From Chromatiaceae bacterium (lineage in GTDB: Bacteria; Pseudomonadota; Gammaproteobacteria; Chromatiales; Chromatiaceae): a DNA stretch of 64,000 nucleotides. The stretch covers positions 1 to 64,000 of the forward strand of contig REDK01000107.1 of NCBI GenBank assembly GCA_007693535.1, given 5' to 3'. A program made the position numbers and the translations under genes. Below are positions 55,861 to 64,000 of this stretch, in pieces; the stretch's first letter is position 1; every line of letters begins with the position of its first letter. The notes under the pieces were generated by a model. The model did no database searches. It saw only the letters and a program-made list of their open reading frames with translations, and was not told the DNA's origin.

Positions 55861-56664
55861 TCACCAGAGCCCGTAATGATGGGCCCCTTCCATCACTCCG
55901 CTGGTGTAATAACCGCTGAGCCCCATGAAGCCTCCTTGGGCATGGTAGACCCGCAATCCCGGCTGACTCGCCATCGCCCGGCGGACCTGTGCCACCAACT
56001 GCTCGTCAGCGTTGCGCACGAGCACACCGGCAAAGCCAGCGGTTAGCGGAAAGACATCATTGCCGCTATCACCGCAAAACACCACCGACTGCTTCTCCAC
56101 CCCCAGCGCCTCGGCGACGAATTCCAATGCCGTCTGCTTGGTGGCACTGGCTGGCAGCAGATCCAGCAATCCATCGCCACTCTGGGAGTCGTAGCTATAG
56201 ACGATGACCTCGTCGAAGCGGCCCTTCGCGCGGGTTTCTACCAACTGCAGGATCTCGGCCTGGCTGGCGTGGTCGACAAAGTAGCTCTGCTTGAACTGGT
56301 TGAGGTGCTCCTGCCCCTGCTCCACCAGCCCCGGGATGTCGTCAACCGCTGCCTTGATTGCTTGCGCATCCCAGCGCGGGCTTGCCTCCTGCACATGGGT
56401 AACCCAGCCGTCATCGAAGGTCCAGTCGCCCTGGTCGTACCGCCGGATCGAGGTTCCTACATCGCCGATCAGTATATCTGGCGGCCGCACCCCGTATTCG
56501 GAGATTGCGGCCCGGGCGAGATCGAGGTTACGGCCCGTCACATAGACGACGGTCACACCGTGCTTGACGGTCAACTCATTGAACAGATCGATCGCCCCAG
56601 CGTCGGCCGGCCACCGGCCATTGGGCAATAGGGTTCGGTCCAGATCGGTTGCCAATACCTTCAT
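55861..56664 (-). CDS. HAD-IIB phosphatase, sucrose-/glucosylglycerol-phosphatase-like
   Basis: A 267-residue haloacid dehalogenase hydrolase. Motif I is LATDLDRTLLPNG (Asp7, Asp9); motif II YVTGRNL; a lysine in ATKQTALEFVAEALG; and motif IV FCGDSGNDVF. The cap resembles sucrose-phosphatase-type HAD proteins (SYFVDHASQAEIL). It lies downstream of, and in the same direction as, the GH13 phosphorylase with a 125-base gap, which suggests a role in osmolyte or disaccharide phosphate turnover. ATG 56664. Confidence 0.9.
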   Translation of the reverse strand: MKVLATDLDRTLLPNGRWPADAGAIDLFNELTVKHGVTVVYVTGRNLDLARAAISEYGVRPPDILIGDVGTSIRRYDQGDWTFDDGWVTHVQEASPRWDAQAIKAAVDDIPGLVEQGQEHLNQFKQSYFVDHASQAEILQLVETRAKGRFDEVIVYSYDSQSGDGLLDLLPASATKQTALEFVAEALGVEKQSVVFCGDSGNDVFPLTAGFAGVLVRNADEQLVAQVRRAMASQPGLRVYHAQGGFMGLSGYYTSGVMEGAHHYGLW

Positions 56665-56789
56665 CGTTTGCCTTCCACAGGCCATCAGCCTGTTGCAGAT
56701 GGATGATGCGCACACCGTGCAGACCACAGCCGCCGTAGCAACTGGGCAGGGTGCATGTGATCTTGACCGGCATCGCCCTTGCCTACAGT

Positions 56790-58547
56790 TCAGGCATAGG
56801 AGTACACCTCATGCCGACCGAGTCCATCCTCGTGCTCGATACGGAAGGTGTGGTCGCGCAGGTCCGCGATCAGGGTGGCGCTGTGGCCATGATGCCGCCA
56901 GGCCAACTGCAATTGATGCGCCTCGCCCTCATCACAGACCTCAAGCATCCCATCGAAGGCCGGTGAACTGTTGCGCAGCCGGAGCATCTCGAGTTGGTCA
57001 AGTACGACCGGTCGCTGCAATCCCGCTTCCACCGCCTCCAAGCTCAGGTTGGTGCGGTTGATCTCCTTATGGCCGGCAGCCCCGCCACGATCGGCCGCGG
57101 GGTAATCGTTGCAACCAGCAAACAGGTCCAGGTACCAGACCTGGGGGATGCCAGGCATGAATAACTGAATCGCCCGCGCCAGACGCAACTTGCGTTCGTC
57201 CTCGCCCAAAGCGCTGAAGAAGGTGGCATTCACCTGATAATAGGAGATCTTTTTGCCATCCGGACCGTACAGGCTCTTGACCCGCCCCCCGCGCTCGGTG
57301 ATACGGGCCATGATGTTGTCGATCTGTTCGTCGGTGAGCAGTCCAGCGCGCACGATCCCATCGATCTCCTTGCCTTTCAGGTCGAGCACTGGAATACCGT
57401 CATGACAGCCCAGCATATTGATAGTCTTCAACCCCTTGGAGGCAATCTCGGTGACCCATCCCAGCAGATGCTCCCGAGTCCCACGCTCAAGCGCATCGAT
57501 CACGAGCCCCGGGAAAAAGAAATCATAGATGGGATAGCCCTTCTCTGCCACTTCTTCGTGGAGTCCGGCCCCGTACTCGGAATGAATCTCGGGGAAGATG
57601 ATCAGGTCGTATTTGCGGGCAATCTCCTTCAGCCGCTCAAGATACTCCCAGGTTCCGGGCCGGTTGAAGAAATTGGGCTGCCCCGGCTCCTTGTGCAGAT
57701 AGGCAAAGGCATCCAGCCGCACAATCTTTGCCCCATGATCGCGCAACTTGCGCAGGGTCTCGTCGTAGAAGTCCCAGACCTTCTCTGAGCGCGCATTAAG
57801 ATCCATCTGCCCGAGGTATTCGCGTCGACTTTCCAGGATCGCCATGACCGGCTCCTGAAAACCCGACCAGGCTCCGAGGTCTATCTGGTCCAACGGCTGT
57901 CGCGCATGGATCGCTGCGTTCACCAGTTCGGCGATGGCTGCGGCCTCATCGGCAGTTATGCCAGGAATGGCAGCCAGGTCCTGCGAACTCAGTTCGCGAT
58001 GGAAGATATCCTGGTAGAAAGTATTCCAGTAGAGCCGGTCTGAGCCGTCGGGAAACCTGACCTTCATCACCGGAAGGCCTGGTTTGCGCATGAACAACTT
58101 CTGCAGATACTCGGGTTGTGGAATGACGCACCCATCTGGCCCCAAGGTGCCGTGGGAATGCCAGAACTCATTCCAGTCGACAAAGAAATCGCTGTATTCG
58201 GAATCCTGCCCGTGGACGAGAAGGTCCTGAAACTGCGGCGAGCGTACCGACAGGTGGTTCAAGATCAGATCGAGCTTGAACATGATGTTCAGGTTGCGCA
58301 GGTCTACTAGGTCCTGGGGGCTCACCAGGTCCTCGTTGAGATCATAGTTGATGACCGAAAAGCCGCGGTCGAGATCGCTATTGAAGAAGGTGGGCAGGAT
58401 ATAGAATAGCGAGAATGCACCATGGCACTCGGGACGTTTGAGCATGGCCACCGCATCGGACAGGCGTGAGCCGATACTGTCGGGATAAGCATTCAACATC
58501 ACGCCCTGGGGCAGGGACTGCTTGGTAAAGATGGATTCGGCATTCAT
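56790..58547 (-). CDS. GH13 sucrose-phosphorylase-type enzyme (GH13_18-like)
   Basis: A 585-residue alpha-glucoside phosphorylase with (beta/alpha)8 barrel. Motifs are DLILNHLS, IVRLDAFAYLHKEPG with the nucleophile Asp, LIIFPEIHSEYG with the acid/base Glu, and MLGCHDGIPVLD with the third Asp. GH13_18 members use sucrose, sucrose-6'-phosphate, glucosylglycerol or glucosylglycerate and phosphate; the acceptor here cannot be told. ATG 58547. The adjacent HAD phosphatase points to compatible-solute metabolism. Confidence 0.92.
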   Translation of the reverse strand: MNAESIFTKQSLPQGVMLNAYPDSIGSRLSDAVAMLKRPECHGAFSLFYILPTFFNSDLDRGFSVINYDLNEDLVSPQDLVDLRNLNIMFKLDLILNHLSVRSPQFQDLLVHGQDSEYSDFFVDWNEFWHSHGTLGPDGCVIPQPEYLQKLFMRKPGLPVMKVRFPDGSDRLYWNTFYQDIFHRELSSQDLAAIPGITADEAAAIAELVNAAIHARQPLDQIDLGAWSGFQEPVMAILESRREYLGQMDLNARSEKVWDFYDETLRKLRDHGAKIVRLDAFAYLHKEPGQPNFFNRPGTWEYLERLKEIARKYDLIIFPEIHSEYGAGLHEEVAEKGYPIYDFFFPGLVIDALERGTREHLLGWVTEIASKGLKTINMLGCHDGIPVLDLKGKEIDGIVRAGLLTDEQIDNIMARITERGGRVKSLYGPDGKKISYYQVNATFFSALGEDERKLRLARAIQLFMPGIPQVWYLDLFAGCNDYPAADRGGAAGHKEINRTNLSLEAVEAGLQRPVVLDQLEMLRLRNSSPAFDGMLEVCDEGEAHQLQLAWRHHGHSATLIADLRDHTFRIEHEDGLGRHEVYSYA

Positions 58548-59213
58548 AGCAAGCCCTCGGCTATGGCTGCTCCCGCAACCAGGCGGGGAGCCAAGCGTCG
58601 TGCCGGACAGCAGGGTCCGGGATGGATTGGTGAAGCGCGGAAATCCAACCGTGTAGGGGAGGACAGCAGGCTCATACACGGTCGCCACAGGCAGCAGCAG
58701 GGCCTGTGCAACCGCCAGCTTGGCGCAGCACAACAGACCCGGATAGAGGGTGCCGGTCGCGCAAACTGGCGAGGAGACGGAGGTCAGCGCGGATAAAGAA
58801 AGGAGGTTGCAGTTGGTCTTTAGCGTTGGGATGGTTGCTTGACGCCGGGAGCGCGCCATTCGTAGTCTCGCACATCTCGGGTTGATGTCAAGGCAGGAAC
58901 TAGCTACCCAACTCATCCCGATCAGTGGGGAATTCGGTCATCCACCAGGGCAGGGAGAAAACCCGGGTCATGGCTGCGGGCGCATCAGCGTTGTCAGGTA
59001 GCCAACACGCTCAGCGCAATGCGGGCATTGGTCGATAGCAGCAATTGGGGGCAAAGGGTAGGGCGGAGCCGGATTGCCGTGTCTAGATTGCATCGCAACG
59101 GGCTGGAGACGGACTGCTTCACACGGGTCCGCCAGCGTGCACCTGTACGCAATCCACCCTGACCGGATTACAATGGCAAGCAGGCAAACAGGCGACGGCG
59201 ACTATGCAGCCGC
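58548..59213. other. 666-base intergenic region upstream of the GH13 gene
   Basis: It is richer in AT than its surroundings. It holds the candidate promoter at 58862-58891 (minus strand), implying a 5' leader of about 300 bases for the GH13 mRNA. No credible gene is seen; open minus-strand frames lack binding sites and family motifs. Confidence 0.45.
58862..58891 (-). promoter_or_regulatory. candidate promoter of the GH13-HAD unit
   Basis: TTGACA (minus strand, 58891-58886) and GACTAC (58867-58862) are 18 bases apart. The -35 is perfect, the -10 poor. The -35 is part of the palindrome TTGATGTCAA, perhaps an operator half. Confidence 0.45.
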
Positions 59214-59801
59214 TCACTGATCCCCTGCACCGTAGAAGCCGATCTCGGCAACACAGATATCTGCCCGCATAGGCTGCCCGATCGCAACCACGCCGAGCCG
59301 GCGCAGGCGCGCAACGTCTAGGGCTGGCACAAGACGGTGGGGTACGAACTTGTCGAAAGGTAATCGCACCTCATGCCAACCGAGCCCGGCATTAAAGGTG
59401 GCGCGATAGGATTGCCACGGCAGCCGGGTCGCGCTGGTTTTCAGGTGAACATGATAGCGTTCGCCGTTTCCTTGCACCACGAGCCGAATGCCTTGGAATC
59501 GTCGACCGTCCAAGGTGCCGTCAGGGGCCAGATCGAGATTGATCTGCACGAAGCCGCCGTTGTTCTCCAGGCGCACGTCGCCGGACAGGCAGAGTGCATG
59601 CCGGCCGTCGATCTCGCGCCACTGCATCCTGGCAGTGGACACGCCGCCCATCACCTGGTCGGTGGCTAGACGCCAGGCAGTACCCAGACGCGACCGCCCA
59701 TCGCGGACAGTAAAGTCGTCGATCAGGCCGGTATCGGCGGCGCGCGTCGGTGTGATCATGGCCGTGATCATCAGCAGTAGAATGGGCATGGGTTTACGCA
59801 T
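59214..59801 (-). CDS. CIA30/NDUFAF1-like secreted protein
   Basis: A 195-residue protein with a signal peptide (MRKPMPILLLMITAMITPTRA). A CIA30-type jelly-roll follows: LIDDFTVRDGRSRLGTAWRLATDQVMGGVSTARMQW, then GGFVQINLDLAPDG and RFQGIRLVVQGNGERYHVHLKT. Mitochondrial CIA30 (NDUFAF1) is a complex I assembly factor; bacterial secreted relatives have unknown roles. ATG 59801. It stands alone. Confidence 0.9.
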   Translation of the reverse strand: MRKPMPILLLMITAMITPTRAADTGLIDDFTVRDGRSRLGTAWRLATDQVMGGVSTARMQWREIDGRHALCLSGDVRLENNGGFVQINLDLAPDGTLDGRRFQGIRLVVQGNGERYHVHLKTSATRLPWQSYRATFNAGLGWHEVRLPFDKFVPHRLVPALDVARLRRLGVVAIGQPMRADICVAEIGFYGAGDQ

Positions 59802-59837
59802 GCTGACAGTTTGGCCCAGTCCGGCCACCCGTTGCAA

Positions 59838-60384: not shown

Positions 60385-60774
60385 ATGTACGGCTTTTCCA
60401 AGCGACTCGACGCCAACTTCGATGAGGCCATCGAGCAGGTCACCGCGGCCTTGAAGAGCGAGGGCTTCGGCGTCTTGAGCGACATTGACGTCAGTGCCAC
60501 CTTCAAGGCCAAGCTCGGCGTCGAGCACCCCCCCTATCGGATCCTGGGCGCCTGCAATCCGCACTTGGCCCAGCAGGCCATCAGCGCCGAACCGGACATC
60601 GGCCTCTTGTTACCTTGTAACGTTGTTGTCCGCGAAGAAGAGGATGGCGCCATCTCGGTGCTGTTCATGGATCCGGGCGCGGTCCTGGGGCTGGTAGATA
60701 ATCCGCAGATCGGCGCGCTTGCAGGAGAGGTTCGCGCGCGTCTTGAACAGGTGGCCAACATGCTGGCCGGTTGA
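60385..60774 (+). CDS. DUF302 domain protein
   Basis: A 129-residue cytoplasmic protein that is essentially one DUF302 domain: [55 protein letters not shown], then [13 protein letters not shown]. The conserved Cys in GACNP and LPCN and the Glu in GVEHPPY are family features. The role is unknown; relatives often occur in sulfur oxidisers. ATG 60385 has TGGAGA eight bases upstream. Confidence 0.94.
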
Positions 60775-60993
60775 CCAACAGACATCCCGCCGGCCCGCGT
60801 CCCTGCTGGCGGCAGGGCCGAACCGCTTCCAAGCTAAAGCGGCTCAAACGGCCGCTGCCAGGAGCCGCGCGGACACGGCCCCGCGCACCCACCGCACGTC
60901 CAGGAGGAGGACCTCCCGTCGTCGACCTTGCGGTGCCATGCGCCAAGCGTGTCTAATCATGGGTCATCAACGCCCGGACCGAGACTCGTCGCC

Positions 60994-63618
60994 ATGGCCC
61001 TGAACAATCCAGCCGCGCCAGTTGTCAAGGCGCAGCTGCAAGATGCCTATTTGCCGGCGCCGGGGCACTTTGACGAGATGCGCGGCACCGACGGAGCACT
61101 GCGGCCGCACTGGCGTTACCTGCTGGATGCTTTGCGCAAGCTAGGGCCAAACGGCATCGACGTGCGCTGGCAGGAAGCGCGCCGACTCATCCGCGATAAT
61201 GGCGTCACTTACAACGTCTATGGCGATCCACGAGGCATTTCCCGTCCTTGGGAACTCGACCCCCTTCCCCTGCTGCTGCGCGGCGAGGAATGGGCGGAAC
61301 TCGAACGCGGCCTGATCCAGCGTGCGGAACTGCTGAACGCGATCCTGCTGGATCTGTACGGGGCCCGCAGTCTGATCAGCAAGGGTCTGCTCCCCGCAGA
61401 ACTGGTGGATGGACATCCAGACTATCTGCTGCCCTGCCATGGCACCACGGTCGCCGCCGAGCGCCCTCTGGTCTTCTACAGCGCCGACCTCACCCGGGAC
61501 CCCAGCGGTCATTGGCGCATCATCGGCGACCGCACCCAGAGCCCATCCGGCGCCGGTTATGCACTTGAGAACCGGGTGGTCCTGTCGCGGGTGATCCCAA
61601 GCCTGTTTCGCGACTCCCATGTCCATCGGCTGGCCGGGTTCTTCCGATCGGTGCGACGGGCGATGATCCGGCTGGCACCGCGCCACGAGGATCATGCCCG
61701 GGTGGCGCTGCTCACACCGGGACCGAGCAACGAGGCCTATTTCGAGCATGCCTACCTGGCCACCTATCTCGGCTACACCCTAGTGCGCGGCGGCGACCTG
61801 TCGGTCCGCGACGGTGCCCTATGGTTGCGGACCTTGGGCCGTCTGGAGCGCATCGACGCGCTGTTGCGGCGGGTGGATGATTCCTGGTGCGATCCGCTGG
61901 AGTTGCGCGAAAACTCCCTGCTCGGCGTGCCCGGGCTGTTGCAGTCGGTGCGGGCTGGCAATCTGACCGTCGCCAATGCGCTCGGCAGCGGCGTCCTCGA
62001 GCACCCCGGGCTGATGGTATTTCTGCCCCGGCTGTGCGAGCACCTGCTGCGCGAGGAATTGCAACTCCCTCATCTGCGCACCTGGTGGTGCGGGACGCGC
62101 GCGGATCGCGACTTCGTGATCGGGAATCTAGAAGGACTGGTGATCAAGCGTGCCGGTAGCCCGGCCGGGCAACGCTGCCAATTCGGGCGCAAGCTCAGCT
62201 CAGCCGAACGCGAACGCCTGGTCGCAGCCATCCGCGCCGAGCCTTACCGATATGTGGCACAGGAGGAGGTGACGCCTTCCACTGCCCCCGCCTACATCGA
62301 CGGCATCATCGAACCGCGCCCGTTTGTGCTGCGCAGCTTCATGGTCGCTGAAGAAGAAGGCTACACCGTCATGCCAGGCGGCTTGAGCCGGGTTGCCCTG
62401 GGCGCCGATACACCGATGGTGTCGAATCAGCTCGGCGGGCTGGGCAAGGATACCTGGGTCTTGGCGACCGAGCCGGAGCGCCAGGAGACGCTCCTGGTAG
62501 CCAGTGACCGCGCCGCACCAGCGGTGGTCAAGGAAAGCGAGGTCTCCTCGCGGGTGGCTGACAATCTCTTCTGGATTGGCCGTTACGCTGAACGCGCGGA
62601 GGGTCTGGTGCGACTGCTGCGGGTCGGCATCATTCAACTCTCCGAGCGCAACACGTTTGCCGATACCACGGCGAGTGACTGCTGCCTGCCATTGCTGTTA
62701 GCAGCCCTCACCCATCAAAGTCAGACCTATCCTGGCTTTGTCGGCGATGGCTCTGCTGCACTACTGCTGGACCCAACCCCGGAGTTGCTTGGCCTAGTCA
62801 GCGATATCGAGCGTATCGGCGGCCTGCCCCAGACCCTGCAGGCCCTCGACCATGCCGCCTGGTCGGTGCGCGAGCGCCTTTCTGCTGATACCTGGCGGAT
62901 CATCAACGACATCGAACACCATCTGCAGGTGCTCACCCGCTCCCCGCCGCAAGCCCTTGCCAACGCATTGGATGTGCTTGACCCACTGATCACATCATTG
63001 GTGGCGTTTTCGGCACTCACGAACGAAAACATGACCCACAACGAGGGTTGGCATTTCCTTGAGGCAGGTCGCCGCCTGGAACGGGGAATCAATACCGCCA
63101 CCCTGCTCCGCTCGACCCTTGTCACCGTGGCTCCTGAACAGGGCGAAGGGATGATCGTCGAGGCCGTCCTCGGTGTCACCGACAGCCTGATCACCTATCG
63201 TCGGCGCTATCAAGCCGGTACCCGGGTTGGCGCGCTCCTCGATCTGGTACTGCAGGATGAGACCAACCCGCGCGCGCTCGCTTACCAGATTGCCCAGCTT
63301 GCCCGGCTGATCGACGAAATGCCGCGCGACGGCATGACTCCACGCCGGACCCCGGCACAGAAGCTGTCACTGCGGCTACTGGCAGACCTGCGACTCGCCG
63401 AAATCCACCAGCTTGCCCAAGCCGGTCCCGATGGCAAGCGCCGGGAGACATTGGCCGAACTGCTGACCAGTATCGAAGGCGATATGTCCGACCTATCCGA
63501 CGCGCTGACCGCCCAGTATTTCCGCCACGAGGAACAACCACACAACCTCATCGAACACCGGCAGACAATACGGAATCGACGCGCAATCAGCACGTGTGAC
63601 AATGGGTTCAAACAATGA
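60994..63618 (+). CDS. circularly permuted ATP-grasp / alpha-E fusion protein
   Basis: An 874-residue fusion. Residues about 20-510 are a circularly permuted ATP-grasp (DUF404/DUF407; ARRLIRDNGVTYNVYGDPRG, LLPCHGTTVAAERPLVFYSADLTRDPSGHWRIIGDRTQSPSGAGYALENR, EDHARVALLTPGP). Residues about 530-850 are an alpha-E domain (SRVADNLFWIGRYAERAEGLVRLLR). In most bacteria these are two genes. They occur with a transglutaminase and may form an amide-ligase or peptide-modifying system; the substrate is unknown. ATG 60994; its stop overlaps the next start. Confidence 0.95.
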   Translation: MALNNPAAPVVKAQLQDAYLPAPGHFDEMRGTDGALRPHWRYLLDALRKLGPNGIDVRWQEARRLIRDNGVTYNVYGDPRGISRPWELDPLPLLLRGEEWAELERGLIQRAELLNAILLDLYGARSLISKGLLPAELVDGHPDYLLPCHGTTVAAERPLVFYSADLTRDPSGHWRIIGDRTQSPSGAGYALENRVVLSRVIPSLFRDSHVHRLAGFFRSVRRAMIRLAPRHEDHARVALLTPGPSNEAYFEHAYLATYLGYTLVRGGDLSVRDGALWLRTLGRLERIDALLRRVDDSWCDPLELRENSLLGVPGLLQSVRAGNLTVANALGSGVLEHPGLMVFLPRLCEHLLREELQLPHLRTWWCGTRADRDFVIGNLEGLVIKRAGSPAGQRCQFGRKLSSAERERLVAAIRAEPYRYVAQEEVTPSTAPAYIDGIIEPRPFVLRSFMVAEEEGYTVMPGGLSRVALGADTPMVSNQLGGLGKDTWVLATEPERQETLLVASDRAAPAVVKESEVSSRVADNLFWIGRYAERAEGLVRLLRVGIIQLSERNTFADTTASDCCLPLLLAALTHQSQTYPGFVGDGSAALLLDPTPELLGLVSDIERIGGLPQTLQALDHAAWSVRERLSADTWRIINDIEHHLQVLTRSPPQALANALDVLDPLITSLVAFSALTNENMTHNEGWHFLEAGRRLERGINTATLLRSTLVTVAPEQGEGMIVEAVLGVTDSLITYRRRYQAGTRVGALLDLVLQDETNPRALAYQIAQLARLIDEMPRDGMTPRRTPAQKLSLRLLADLRLAEIHQLAQAGPDGKRRETLAELLTSIEGDMSDLSDALTAQYFRHEEQPHNLIEHRQTIRNRRAISTCDNGFKQ

Positions 63619-64000
63619 GATACCGCATCATCCATGTGACCCGCTACGGGTATGTGGACAGCGTGTCCCTATGTCACAGCATCGCCTATCTGAAGCCCAG
63701 GGACATGCCGCATCAGCAGTGCCTCTCAGCACAGGTGCGGGTTTCTCCCTGGCCTTCGGTCGCACGGGAGCACACCGACATCTTCGGTAACCGGGTCAAC
63801 TACTTCTCGGTACAACTGGCCCATTCCACCCTCGAGATCACCGCAACCAGTGAGGTCGAGGTGCAGGACCAGTTGGTCCCGCCATTCGACGAATCCCCAT
63901 CCTGGGAGCAAGTGCGTGACGGCCTGGCAGATGACCTCAGCGAACCCAGTATTGCTGCACGCATCTTTGCTCTCCCCTCCCCGGTTGCGCCATTGAGTCC
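63615..64000 (+). CDS. transglutaminase-family protein, N-terminal part (cut by window end)
   Basis: The first 128 residues of a bacterial transglutaminase-like protein: RYRIIHVTRYGYVDSVSLCHSIAYLKPRD and FGNRVNYFSVQLAHSTLEITATSEVEV, the Bact_transglu_N beta domain. The catalytic Cys-His-Asp domain lies beyond the window. Its ATG overlaps the stop of the ATP-grasp/alpha-E gene (ATGA), so the two are translationally coupled and probably act together. Confidence 0.93.
   Translation, partial: MRYRIIHVTRYGYVDSVSLCHSIAYLKPRDMPHQQCLSAQVRVSPWPSVAREHTDIFGNRVNYFSVQLAHSTLEITATSEVEVQDQLVPPFDESPSWEQVRDGLADDLSEPSIAARIFALPSPVAPLS

What the first reader, a model, noticed from the sequence alone, without database searches (positions are those of the whole stretch)
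60994..64000. Fused ATP-grasp/alpha-E protein translationally coupled to a transglutaminase
The usual two-gene pair is one polypeptide here, and its stop overlaps the transglutaminase start (ATGA). A ligase domain, a helical alpha-E domain and a transglutaminase in one coupled unit suggest a dedicated peptide or protein modification pathway whose substrate is unknown.
Basis: partly seen in the sequence, partly recalled or inferred. Interest (0 to 1): 0.55.

Follow-up and report, generated by a model that had tools for sequence, protein, structure and literature searches.

The report
Probable dead-ligase fusion beside a transglutaminase
This is a common bacterial two-gene unit of unknown function in which a protein that looks like an amide-bond-making enzyme, but seems to have lost its ATP-binding site, is fused to a helical domain and made together with a transglutaminase-like enzyme.

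Summary
Observation confirmed. Window 60994-63618 encodes one polypeptide, a circularly permuted ATP-grasp domain followed by Alpha-E. Its stop overlaps (ATGA) the start of a complete 296-aa transglutaminase-like gene ending at contig base 64505, past the window. 5S and 23S rRNA genes follow.

It is no oddity. All 80 named-genome loci kept from a scan with this protein carry the fusion; 77 of 80 have the transglutaminase next, and 63 of those 77 overlap. This genome also has the unfused pair beside an Anbu-like gene on another contig, and a DUF2126 transglutaminase/ligase on a third.

Of 132 fused sequences none has the Glu-x-Asn metal site, 1 has the first phosphate-binding Lys and 1 the full Gly-rich loop; 51 of 51 split sequences have Glu-x-Asn and that Lys. 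Fused and split separate on the tree. The transglutaminase triad is intact in 78 of 78.

Best reading: a conserved pseudo-ligase/Alpha-E adaptor for an active transglutaminase, accessory to the split system. From recall, Pfam already describes inactive fused forms; that text and Iyer 2009 were not seen here. The substrate remains unknown.

The parts
60994..63618 (+). Fused gene: N-terminal circularly permuted ATP-grasp-like domain and C-terminal Alpha-E domain (874 aa from ATG 60994; an in-frame TTG at 60928 would give 896 aa)
   Evidence: relatives L030 and L031 align from residue 1 and have an ATG there
61060..62466 (+). ATP-grasp-like domain (residues about 23-491), fold of PDB 3n6x and glutathione synthetases
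   Evidence: 3n6x E 8.3e-81; 3n6x Z 41.5, rmsd 3.3, 443 aligned; glutathione synthetases Z about 23-24
61525..61533 (+). Gly178-Asp179-Arg180, at the place of the Glu-x-Asn metal ligands of active relatives
   Evidence: Glu-x-Asn in 0 of 116 fused and 0 of 16 more; 51 of 51 split
62005..62007 (+). Pro338 where split relatives have the first phosphate-binding Lys (own split K328; E. coli Gss K498)
   Evidence: Lys in 1 of 116 fused and 0 of 16 more; 51 of 51 split
62146..62175 (+). Lys385 (kept here) followed by a degenerate Gly-rich loop (about residues 388-394)
   Evidence: Lys in 82 of 116 and 0 of 16 more; full G-G-x-G in 1 of 116 and 0 of 16; the three Gly columns are 51, 50 and 51 of 51 in split
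62545..63522 (+). Alpha-E domain with the conserved Glu-Arg pair (E533-R534)
   Evidence: all-helical model, mean pLDDT 93
63615..63618 (+). ATGA overlap of fused stop and transglutaminase start
   Evidence: overlap in 63 of 77 linked relatives
63615..64000 (+). Transglutaminase-like gene, 5' part (128 codons); the full 296-aa gene ends at contig base 64505. The Cys184-His227-Asp247 triad lies wholly past the window
   Evidence: triad in 78 of 78 aligned sequences

Best explanation
The unit is an ordinary member of a known, widespread, functionally unsolved module. The fused protein is most likely a pseudo-ligase: it keeps the glutathione-synthetase-like fold and many conserved residues, but not the metal and phosphate ligands needed to make an acyl phosphate. 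With Alpha-E it probably binds and presents a peptide or protein substrate to the transglutaminase-like enzyme encoded in overlap with it, whose triad is intact. It would be an accessory arm of the split ligase/Alpha-E system (here beside an Anbu-like gene on contig C71) and, in many genomes, of the DUF2126 transglutaminase/ligase (here on C17). Shown: architecture, overlap, residue loss, intact triad, nested occurrence. Inferred: loss of ligase activity, translational coupling, adaptor role, partnership. Unknown: the substrate.
For: Residue loss: of 116 distinct fused sequences 0 keep Glu-x-Asn, 1 the first Lys, 1 the full G-G-x-G; of 16 more from a divergent fused group 0, 0 and 0. All 51 split sequences have Glu-x-Asn and the first Lys (the smaller 42 v 51 set shows the same trend). 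In Cp1B, a structural relative (9cjn, Z 21.3), alanine at Arg139, Asp141, Glu163 or Asn165 abolished or significantly attenuated activity (passages of PMC12568646). The site is replaced, not just decayed: Arg for Asn in 106 of 116 and 16 of 16, Gly188 in 116 of 116, Glu247 in 106 of 116, Glu336 in 114 of 116. Fused and split are each one side of a branch, SH-aLRT 100, 117 v 52 rows. Transglutaminase Cys/His/Asp in 78 of 78. Transglutaminase adjacent in 77 of 80 and in 29 of 29 further loci. Nested occurrence: 78 of 249 phylum genomes show a fused match's list (16 of them, matched only over the first half there, were confirmed as fused), and all 78 have at least two Alpha-E matches, while none of the 65 genomes with one Alpha-E match is among them (recounted).
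Against: Loss of known ligands does not prove loss of ATP binding or of all catalysis; some pseudo-enzymes do other chemistry (general knowledge). The Asp equivalent to Gss D318 is kept in 115 of 116 and the second Lys in 82 of 116, including this protein. One fused sequence keeps the first Lys (L200) and one the Gly-rich loop (L175). The motif match to E. coli Gss rests on local patterns; the profile alignments were not significant (E 0.38 and 0.16). G006 (95% complete draft) has the fused form and no second Alpha-E. Two fused-bearing relatives, G001 and G005, and the more distant G035 show no DUF2126. No specific interactions among Anbu-operon proteins were detected in Yersinia bercovieri, though that operon is of the split type.
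Confidence: 0.65

Rival explanations
1. The fused protein is an active ATP-dependent amide ligase, forming a bond that the transglutaminase then transfers or trims.
For: Correct fold (3n6x Z 41.5); Asp equivalent to Gss D318 in 115 of 116 and Lys equivalent to K533 in 82 of 116, both present here. A Yersinia relative from an Anbu operon releases phosphate from ATP (PMC6376114 section 8).
Against: Glu-x-Asn in 0 of 132, first Lys in 1 of 132, full Gly-rich loop in 1 of 132. The Yersinia operon is described as separate ATP-grasp and alphaE genes.
Confidence: 0.12
2. The changed pocket has been recruited for another reaction or ligand, for example binding a carboxylate by the conserved Arg180, and the fused protein is an enzyme of another kind.
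For: The substitutions are themselves highly conserved (Arg 106 of 116 and 16 of 16, Gly188 116 of 116, Glu247 106 of 116, Glu336 114 of 116), which neutral decay would not give.
Against: No ligand or reaction can be named; the former Gly-rich loop is highly variable within the fused clade, which argues against a shared new phosphate site.
Confidence: 0.18
3. A self-contained peptide-maturation (RiPP-like) cluster whose precursor peptide lies nearby.
For: Ligase-like fold plus a cysteine-protease-fold enzyme, as in some peptide pathways (general knowledge; no call).
Against: No conserved small frame near the unit in 27 relatives other than frames overlapping the unit's genes or the CIA30-family gene; rRNA follows.
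Confidence: 0.05

Closest known systems
Inactive circularly permuted ATP-grasp/Alpha-E fusions of the predicted peptide-tagging system (Iyer 2009; Pfam PF04174/PF14403 + PF04168)
   Same: Same domains, order and transglutaminase neighbour. I recall Pfam saying that inactive forms are often fused N-terminal to Alpha-E; that text and Iyer 2009 were not seen here.
   Different: A large transglutaminase frame of the DUF2126 size lies just upstream in 41 of 80 fused loci but in none of the 27 nearest (under 3.6 kb upstream is held for 4 of the 27); here DUF2126 is on another contig, C17.
Anbu operon (ATP-grasp, alphaE, transglutaminase, Anbu), e.g. Yersinia bercovieri (PMC6376114, passages)
   Same: Homologous domains; this genome has a split pair beside an Anbu-like gene on C71.
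   Different: At this locus ATP-grasp and Alpha-E are fused, no Anbu was seen, and the ATP/Mg residues are lost.
Burkholderia cenocepacia I35_5080-83, NtrC/sigma54-dependent cluster (PMC5491218, passages)
   Same: DUF404/407, DUF403 (Alpha-E), transglutaminase-like and large transglutaminase-like genes together.
   Different: ATP-grasp and Alpha-E are separate genes there; a strict scan found no sigma54-like site upstream here.
Glutathione/homoglutathione synthetases, E. coli Gss, peptide-spermidine ligases YgiC/YjfC, fungal Cp1B
   Same: Same fold over residues about 23-491 (Z about 20-24).
   Different: Gss has Glu-x-Asn and both Lys and Cp1B has Glu163/Asn165; the fused clade lacks Glu-x-Asn. 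The others were not checked residue by residue.
Pseudomonas rlo operon (PMC12239564, passages)
   Same: An ATP-grasp protein paired with a transglutaminase-fold protein, one partner presumed inactive.
   Different: There the transglutaminase is the inactive, membrane-bound partner; no Alpha-E is mentioned in the passages read.

Membership tests
Active circularly permuted ATP-grasp ligase | ATP-grasp fold of the glutathione synthetase type | tested here: met
   (3n6x Z 41.5, 443 residues; glutathione synthetases Z about 23-24)
Active circularly permuted ATP-grasp ligase | Glu-x-Asn metal ligands (Gss E330/N332; Cp1B E163/N165) | tested here: not met
   Gly178/Arg180 here; 0 of 116 and 0 of 16 fused v 51 of 51 split
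Active circularly permuted ATP-grasp ligase | First phosphate-binding Lys (human GS K305, Gss K498) | tested here: not met
   Pro338 here; 1 of 116 and 0 of 16 fused v 51 of 51 split
Active circularly permuted ATP-grasp ligase | Second Lys (human GS K364, Gss K533) | tested here: met
   Lys385 here; 82 of 116 and 0 of 16 fused
Active circularly permuted ATP-grasp ligase | Gly-rich phosphate loop after that Lys | tested here: not met
   full G-G-x-G in 1 of 116 and 0 of 16 fused
Active circularly permuted ATP-grasp ligase | ATP binding / ADP formation | not testable with these tools
   needs purified protein
Inactive ATP-grasp/Alpha-E fusion of the predicted tagging system | ATP-grasp N-terminal to Alpha-E in one chain, ATP/Mg residues lost | tested here: met
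   the definition is recalled
Inactive ATP-grasp/Alpha-E fusion of the predicted tagging system | Adjacent transglutaminase | tested here: met
   77 of 80 relatives, 29 of 29 more
Inactive ATP-grasp/Alpha-E fusion of the predicted tagging system | Linked DUF2126 transglutaminase/ligase (common, not known to be obligatory) | tested here: not met
   Not at C85; the genome's one DUF2126 match is on C17
Anbu operon | Anbu (proteasome-like) gene in the operon | tested here: not met
   The proteasome-family gene found is on C71 beside the split pair; the frames listed around the C85 unit show none by eye
Alpha-E (PF04168) | Profile match and Glu-Arg motif | tested here: met
   252 bits v cut-off 20.8; E533/R534 invariant in 41 sequences
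Transglutaminase-like superfamily | Cys-His-Asp triad | tested here: met
   C184, H227, D247 in 78 of 78
Transglutaminase-like superfamily | Cross-linking rather than protease or deamidase activity | not testable with these tools
   sequence does not tell
RiPP/graspetide cluster | Conserved linked precursor peptide | tested here: not met
   27 loci, as far as flanks are held; rRNA downstream

The most novel reading that the evidence does not exclude
A strictly conserved bacterial pseudo-ligase is the substrate-recognition or regulatory half of a protein-tagging system: it pairs with the active split ATP-grasp enzyme (some glutathione synthetases are dimers) and, through Alpha-E, hands the tagged substrate to its own co-encoded transglutaminase. 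The fused/split pair would be an enzyme-pseudoenzyme couple, which would explain why all 78 fused-bearing genomes of the phylum sample also carry another Alpha-E copy.
Probability: 0.25. Interest if true: 0.6.

Novelty: new member of a known kind. Interest (0 to 1): 0.3.

Why it matters
The ATP-grasp/Alpha-E/transglutaminase/Anbu set is widespread and has been predicted since 2009 to tag or modify proteins; papers of 2017 say that the hypotheses are unconfirmed and substrates still to be found, and one of 2021 that no function is known for Anbu. The residue census tells experimenters which copy to assay for ligase activity (the split one) and which to treat as a likely pseudo-enzyme (the fused one).

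Tried and rejected
Substrate peptide or extra enzyme past base 64000: none; 5S and 23S rRNA follow. Conserved third gene: in 27 near relatives (flanks up to 6 kb, shorter on some contigs) only a CIA30-family gene on the other strand recurs, in 5 of 27; the other recurring frames overlap it or the two genes. The upstream DUF302 gene (60385-60774) had no match in two or more of them.

Nitrogen (sigma54) control, suggested by Burkholderia: a strict -24/-12 scan found no site upstream of the fused gene, the DUF302 gene or in the ATP-grasp/Anbu gap of this genome, nor in 23 relatives. One strict motif only, so not excluded.

Fold of Alpha-E: confident model (pLDDT 93); Foldseek's best PDB match had E 0.13, and VIA-align gave Z about 10 to unrelated helical proteins, under its guide value of about 13 for helical bundles. 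A weak match shows neither a new fold nor a function.

Profile alignment of either form with E. coli Gss was not significant; I rely on local motifs and the structure match. Catalytic residue numbers of Gss are recalled; one search confirmed only which letters stand there.

Literature: the listings of searches showed no title that tests a fused ATP-grasp/Alpha-E protein; listings were partial (20 of 221, 25 of 40, 30 of 36), and only titles, starts of abstracts and the passages named were read. Iyer 2009 is not held. The M. tuberculosis gene names were recalled; its single hit was not read. Passages of PMC3610870, PMC7701253 and PMC10318531 added nothing used here. NCBIfam gave no family.

Counting notes: the scan used peptides of this fused protein and kept the best 80 of 136, so it favours fused relatives. 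One search used only frames of at least 350 codons with at least 380 residues matched; those dropped were not counted. The 116 are distinct but not independent (they include the window's own copies in L002 and L003 and many Dyadobacter). One search's row list was cut off; rows are ordered by E and fused rows stood above split ones. One search's script called the transglutaminase adjacent in 24 of 29; domain coordinates gave 29 of 29.
Full report
WHAT IS THERE. Window 60994-63618 (+) is one open frame with a circularly permuted ATP-grasp domain and then an Alpha-E domain. Its stop shares ATGA with the start of a transglutaminase-like gene, which runs to base 64505 of contig C85 and is complete at 296 aa, with N-terminal and core transglutaminase domains. 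The contig stops at 65388, in 5S and 23S rRNA genes on the other strand. So the unit has two genes; the request to look past base 64000 is answered.

THE REST OF THE SYSTEM IN THIS GENOME. The genome (186 contigs; the first two named relatives listed, Halochromatium roseum and Lamprobacter modestohalophilus, match at 75%) has a second, unfused ATP-grasp (499 aa) and Alpha-E (316 aa) on C71, divergent from a 254-aa proteasome-family, Anbu-like gene, and an 1,139-aa transglutaminase/DUF2126 protein on C17. The set is spread over three contigs.

HOW COMMON IT IS. A scan of genome contigs with peptides of this protein kept the best 80 of 136 relatives; all 80 have a fused-length frame, with titles from Gammaproteobacteria, Alphaproteobacteria, Bacteroidota (Dyadobacter and others), Poribacteria, Verrucomicrobiales and Bryobacter-type bacteria. 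77 of 80 have the transglutaminase next, on the same strand; 63 of 77 overlap and 76 of 77 lie within 30 bases. The three without are L053, L073 and L105; each of those genomes has Bact_transglu_N proteins elsewhere. In 29 more loci from unnamed Pseudomonadota the transglutaminase domain lies directly downstream in 29 of 29, and a DUF2126 piece lies within 1.5 kb in 22 of 29, 3 of these on the other strand. Among 25 plasmid records listed (of 117 with a match), 6 carry the label 'circularly permuted type 2 ATP-grasp protein' under the match; the others listed have no annotation there. A frame of over 1,000 codons with a weak transglutaminase match lies just upstream in 41 of 80 loci and in none of the 27 nearest; upstream sequence is short (under 3.6 kb) in 10 of the 80, 4 of them among the 27.

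FUSED NESTED IN SPLIT. Of 249 genomes of the phylum, 145 have Alpha-E, 65 with one match and 80 with more. 78 show a fused match's list; 16 of these matched only over their first half there, and all 16 were fetched and carry both domains in one frame. Each of the 78 has two or more Alpha-E matches; none of the 65 is among them; two genomes with two matches (G085, G111) show no fused row in the list. Among 38 relatives Alpha-E is in 18 and the fused form in 9, of which one (G006) lacks a second copy. DUF2126 is in 11 of 38, all 11 among the 18 with Alpha-E and none among the 20 without; 6 of the 9 fused-bearing have it.

THE LIGASE DOMAIN LOOKS DEAD. I aligned 116 distinct fused and 51 distinct split ATP-grasp sequences (a first set of 42 v 51). 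In split numbering, split sequences have Glu167 and Asn169, Lys328 and Lys375 in 51 of 51 and the three loop glycines in 51, 50 and 51 of 51. Fused sequences have Glu-x-Asn in 0 of 116, Lys328 in 1, Lys375 in 82 and the full G-G-x-G in 1. Sixteen more, from a group divergent in Alpha-E, have 0, 0, 0 and 0 of 16. These positions match motifs of E. coli Gss (E330/N332, K498, K533) and correspond to features described for glutathione synthetases (acidic metal ligands, Lys305/Lys364 of the human enzyme, G-loop; passages of PMC2845819) and for Cp1B, where Ala at Arg139, Asp141, Glu163 or Asn165 abolished or significantly attenuated activity (passages of PMC12568646). The assignment to human residues is mine, by motif.

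WHAT THE FUSED CLADE KEEPS AND CHANGES. Kept as in split sequences (split numbering, fused of 116): Asp154 115, Glu240 116, Asp257 116, Arg282 116, Asp290 116, Arg437 116, Arg455 114, Lys474 114, Asp475 114. In the 16 divergent ones Arg437 is kept in 16 but Asp154 is Glu in 15 and Lys474 is Ala in 15. Changed but conserved (window numbering): Arg180 106, Gln182 104, Gly188 116, Glu247 106, Glu336 114. The pocket was thus changed under selection, not merely lost.

PHYLOGENY. On a quick IQ-TREE of 169 rows, fused (117) and split (52) are each one side of a single branch (SH-aLRT 100; 0 of 500 label shuffles as low). The tool warns of long branches and near-copies, so a single origin is favoured, not shown. 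The 16 are not in the tree.

STRUCTURE. The fused model (mean pLDDT 82) matches 3n6x at Z 41.5, rmsd 3.3, 443 residues, then glutathione and homoglutathione synthetases, YgiC, YjfC, Cp1B and Gss. YgiC and YjfC are annotated as peptide-spermidine ligases. Alpha-E alone gives a confident helical model without a convincing solved relative.

THE TRANSGLUTAMINASE LOOKS ALIVE. Cys184, His227 and Asp247 are present in 78 of 78 aligned proteins, this one included. Whether it cross-links, cleaves or deamidates cannot be told.

MECHANISM, WITH STATUS. Shown by sequence: one chain, overlap, loss of ATP/Mg residues, intact triad, nested occurrence. Inferred: coupled translation; no ligation by the fused protein; substrate presentation to the transglutaminase; the ATP-driven step done by the split enzyme and/or the DUF2126 ligase. 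Published context: a Yersinia ATP-grasp from an Anbu operon releases phosphate from ATP, and no specific interactions among the operon's proteins were detected (PMC6376114, passages and section 8); a Burkholderia cluster of this type depends on NtrC and sigma54 (PMC5491218, passages); in marine metagenomes these domains are associated with urea metabolism domains (PMC3597751, passages). A nitrogen-stress role is plausible, but my strict sigma54 scan here was negative.

COMPARISON AND NOVELTY. The gene set is in print (citing Iyer 2009). From recall, Pfam PF04174 states that active and inactive versions exist and that the inactive ones are often fused to Alpha-E; I could not see that text. My census agrees with it. 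What the pseudo-ligase does remains open.

Noticed in passing
L004:7795-11393 (contig C71 of the same genome): Split ATP-grasp (499 aa) and Alpha-E (316 aa), divergent from a 254-aa proteasome-family (Anbu-like) gene; neither Bact_transglu_N nor Transglut_core has a match on this contig.
   Followed up: partly
L120:5500-8919 (contig C17 of the same genome): 1,139-aa transglutaminase + DUF2126 protein, unlinked from the other members; neighbours look like a histidinol-phosphate aminotransferase and a glycosyltransferase (by eye).
   Followed up: partly
L003:6795-7389 (contig C85, past the window): 5S and 23S rRNA genes on the minus strand end the contig, a likely reason for the assembly break.
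   Followed up: yes
L206-L221: Sixteen fused proteins of a divergent group have Arg at the first-Lys position (16 of 16), Glu at the kept Asp (15 of 16) and Ala at Lys474 (15 of 16); possibly a distinct pseudo-ligase subtype.
   Followed up: partly
window 59214-59837 (-): CIA30-family gene near the fused gene, kept there in 5 of 27 near relatives on the opposite strand.
   Followed up: partly
window 60385-60774 (+): DUF302 gene directly upstream of the fused gene, not recurring there in 27 near relatives.
   Followed up: yes
window 55861-58916 (-): A sucrose-phosphatase-like (S6PP) gene beside an alpha-amylase-family gene, possibly a sucrose pathway pair.
   Followed up: no
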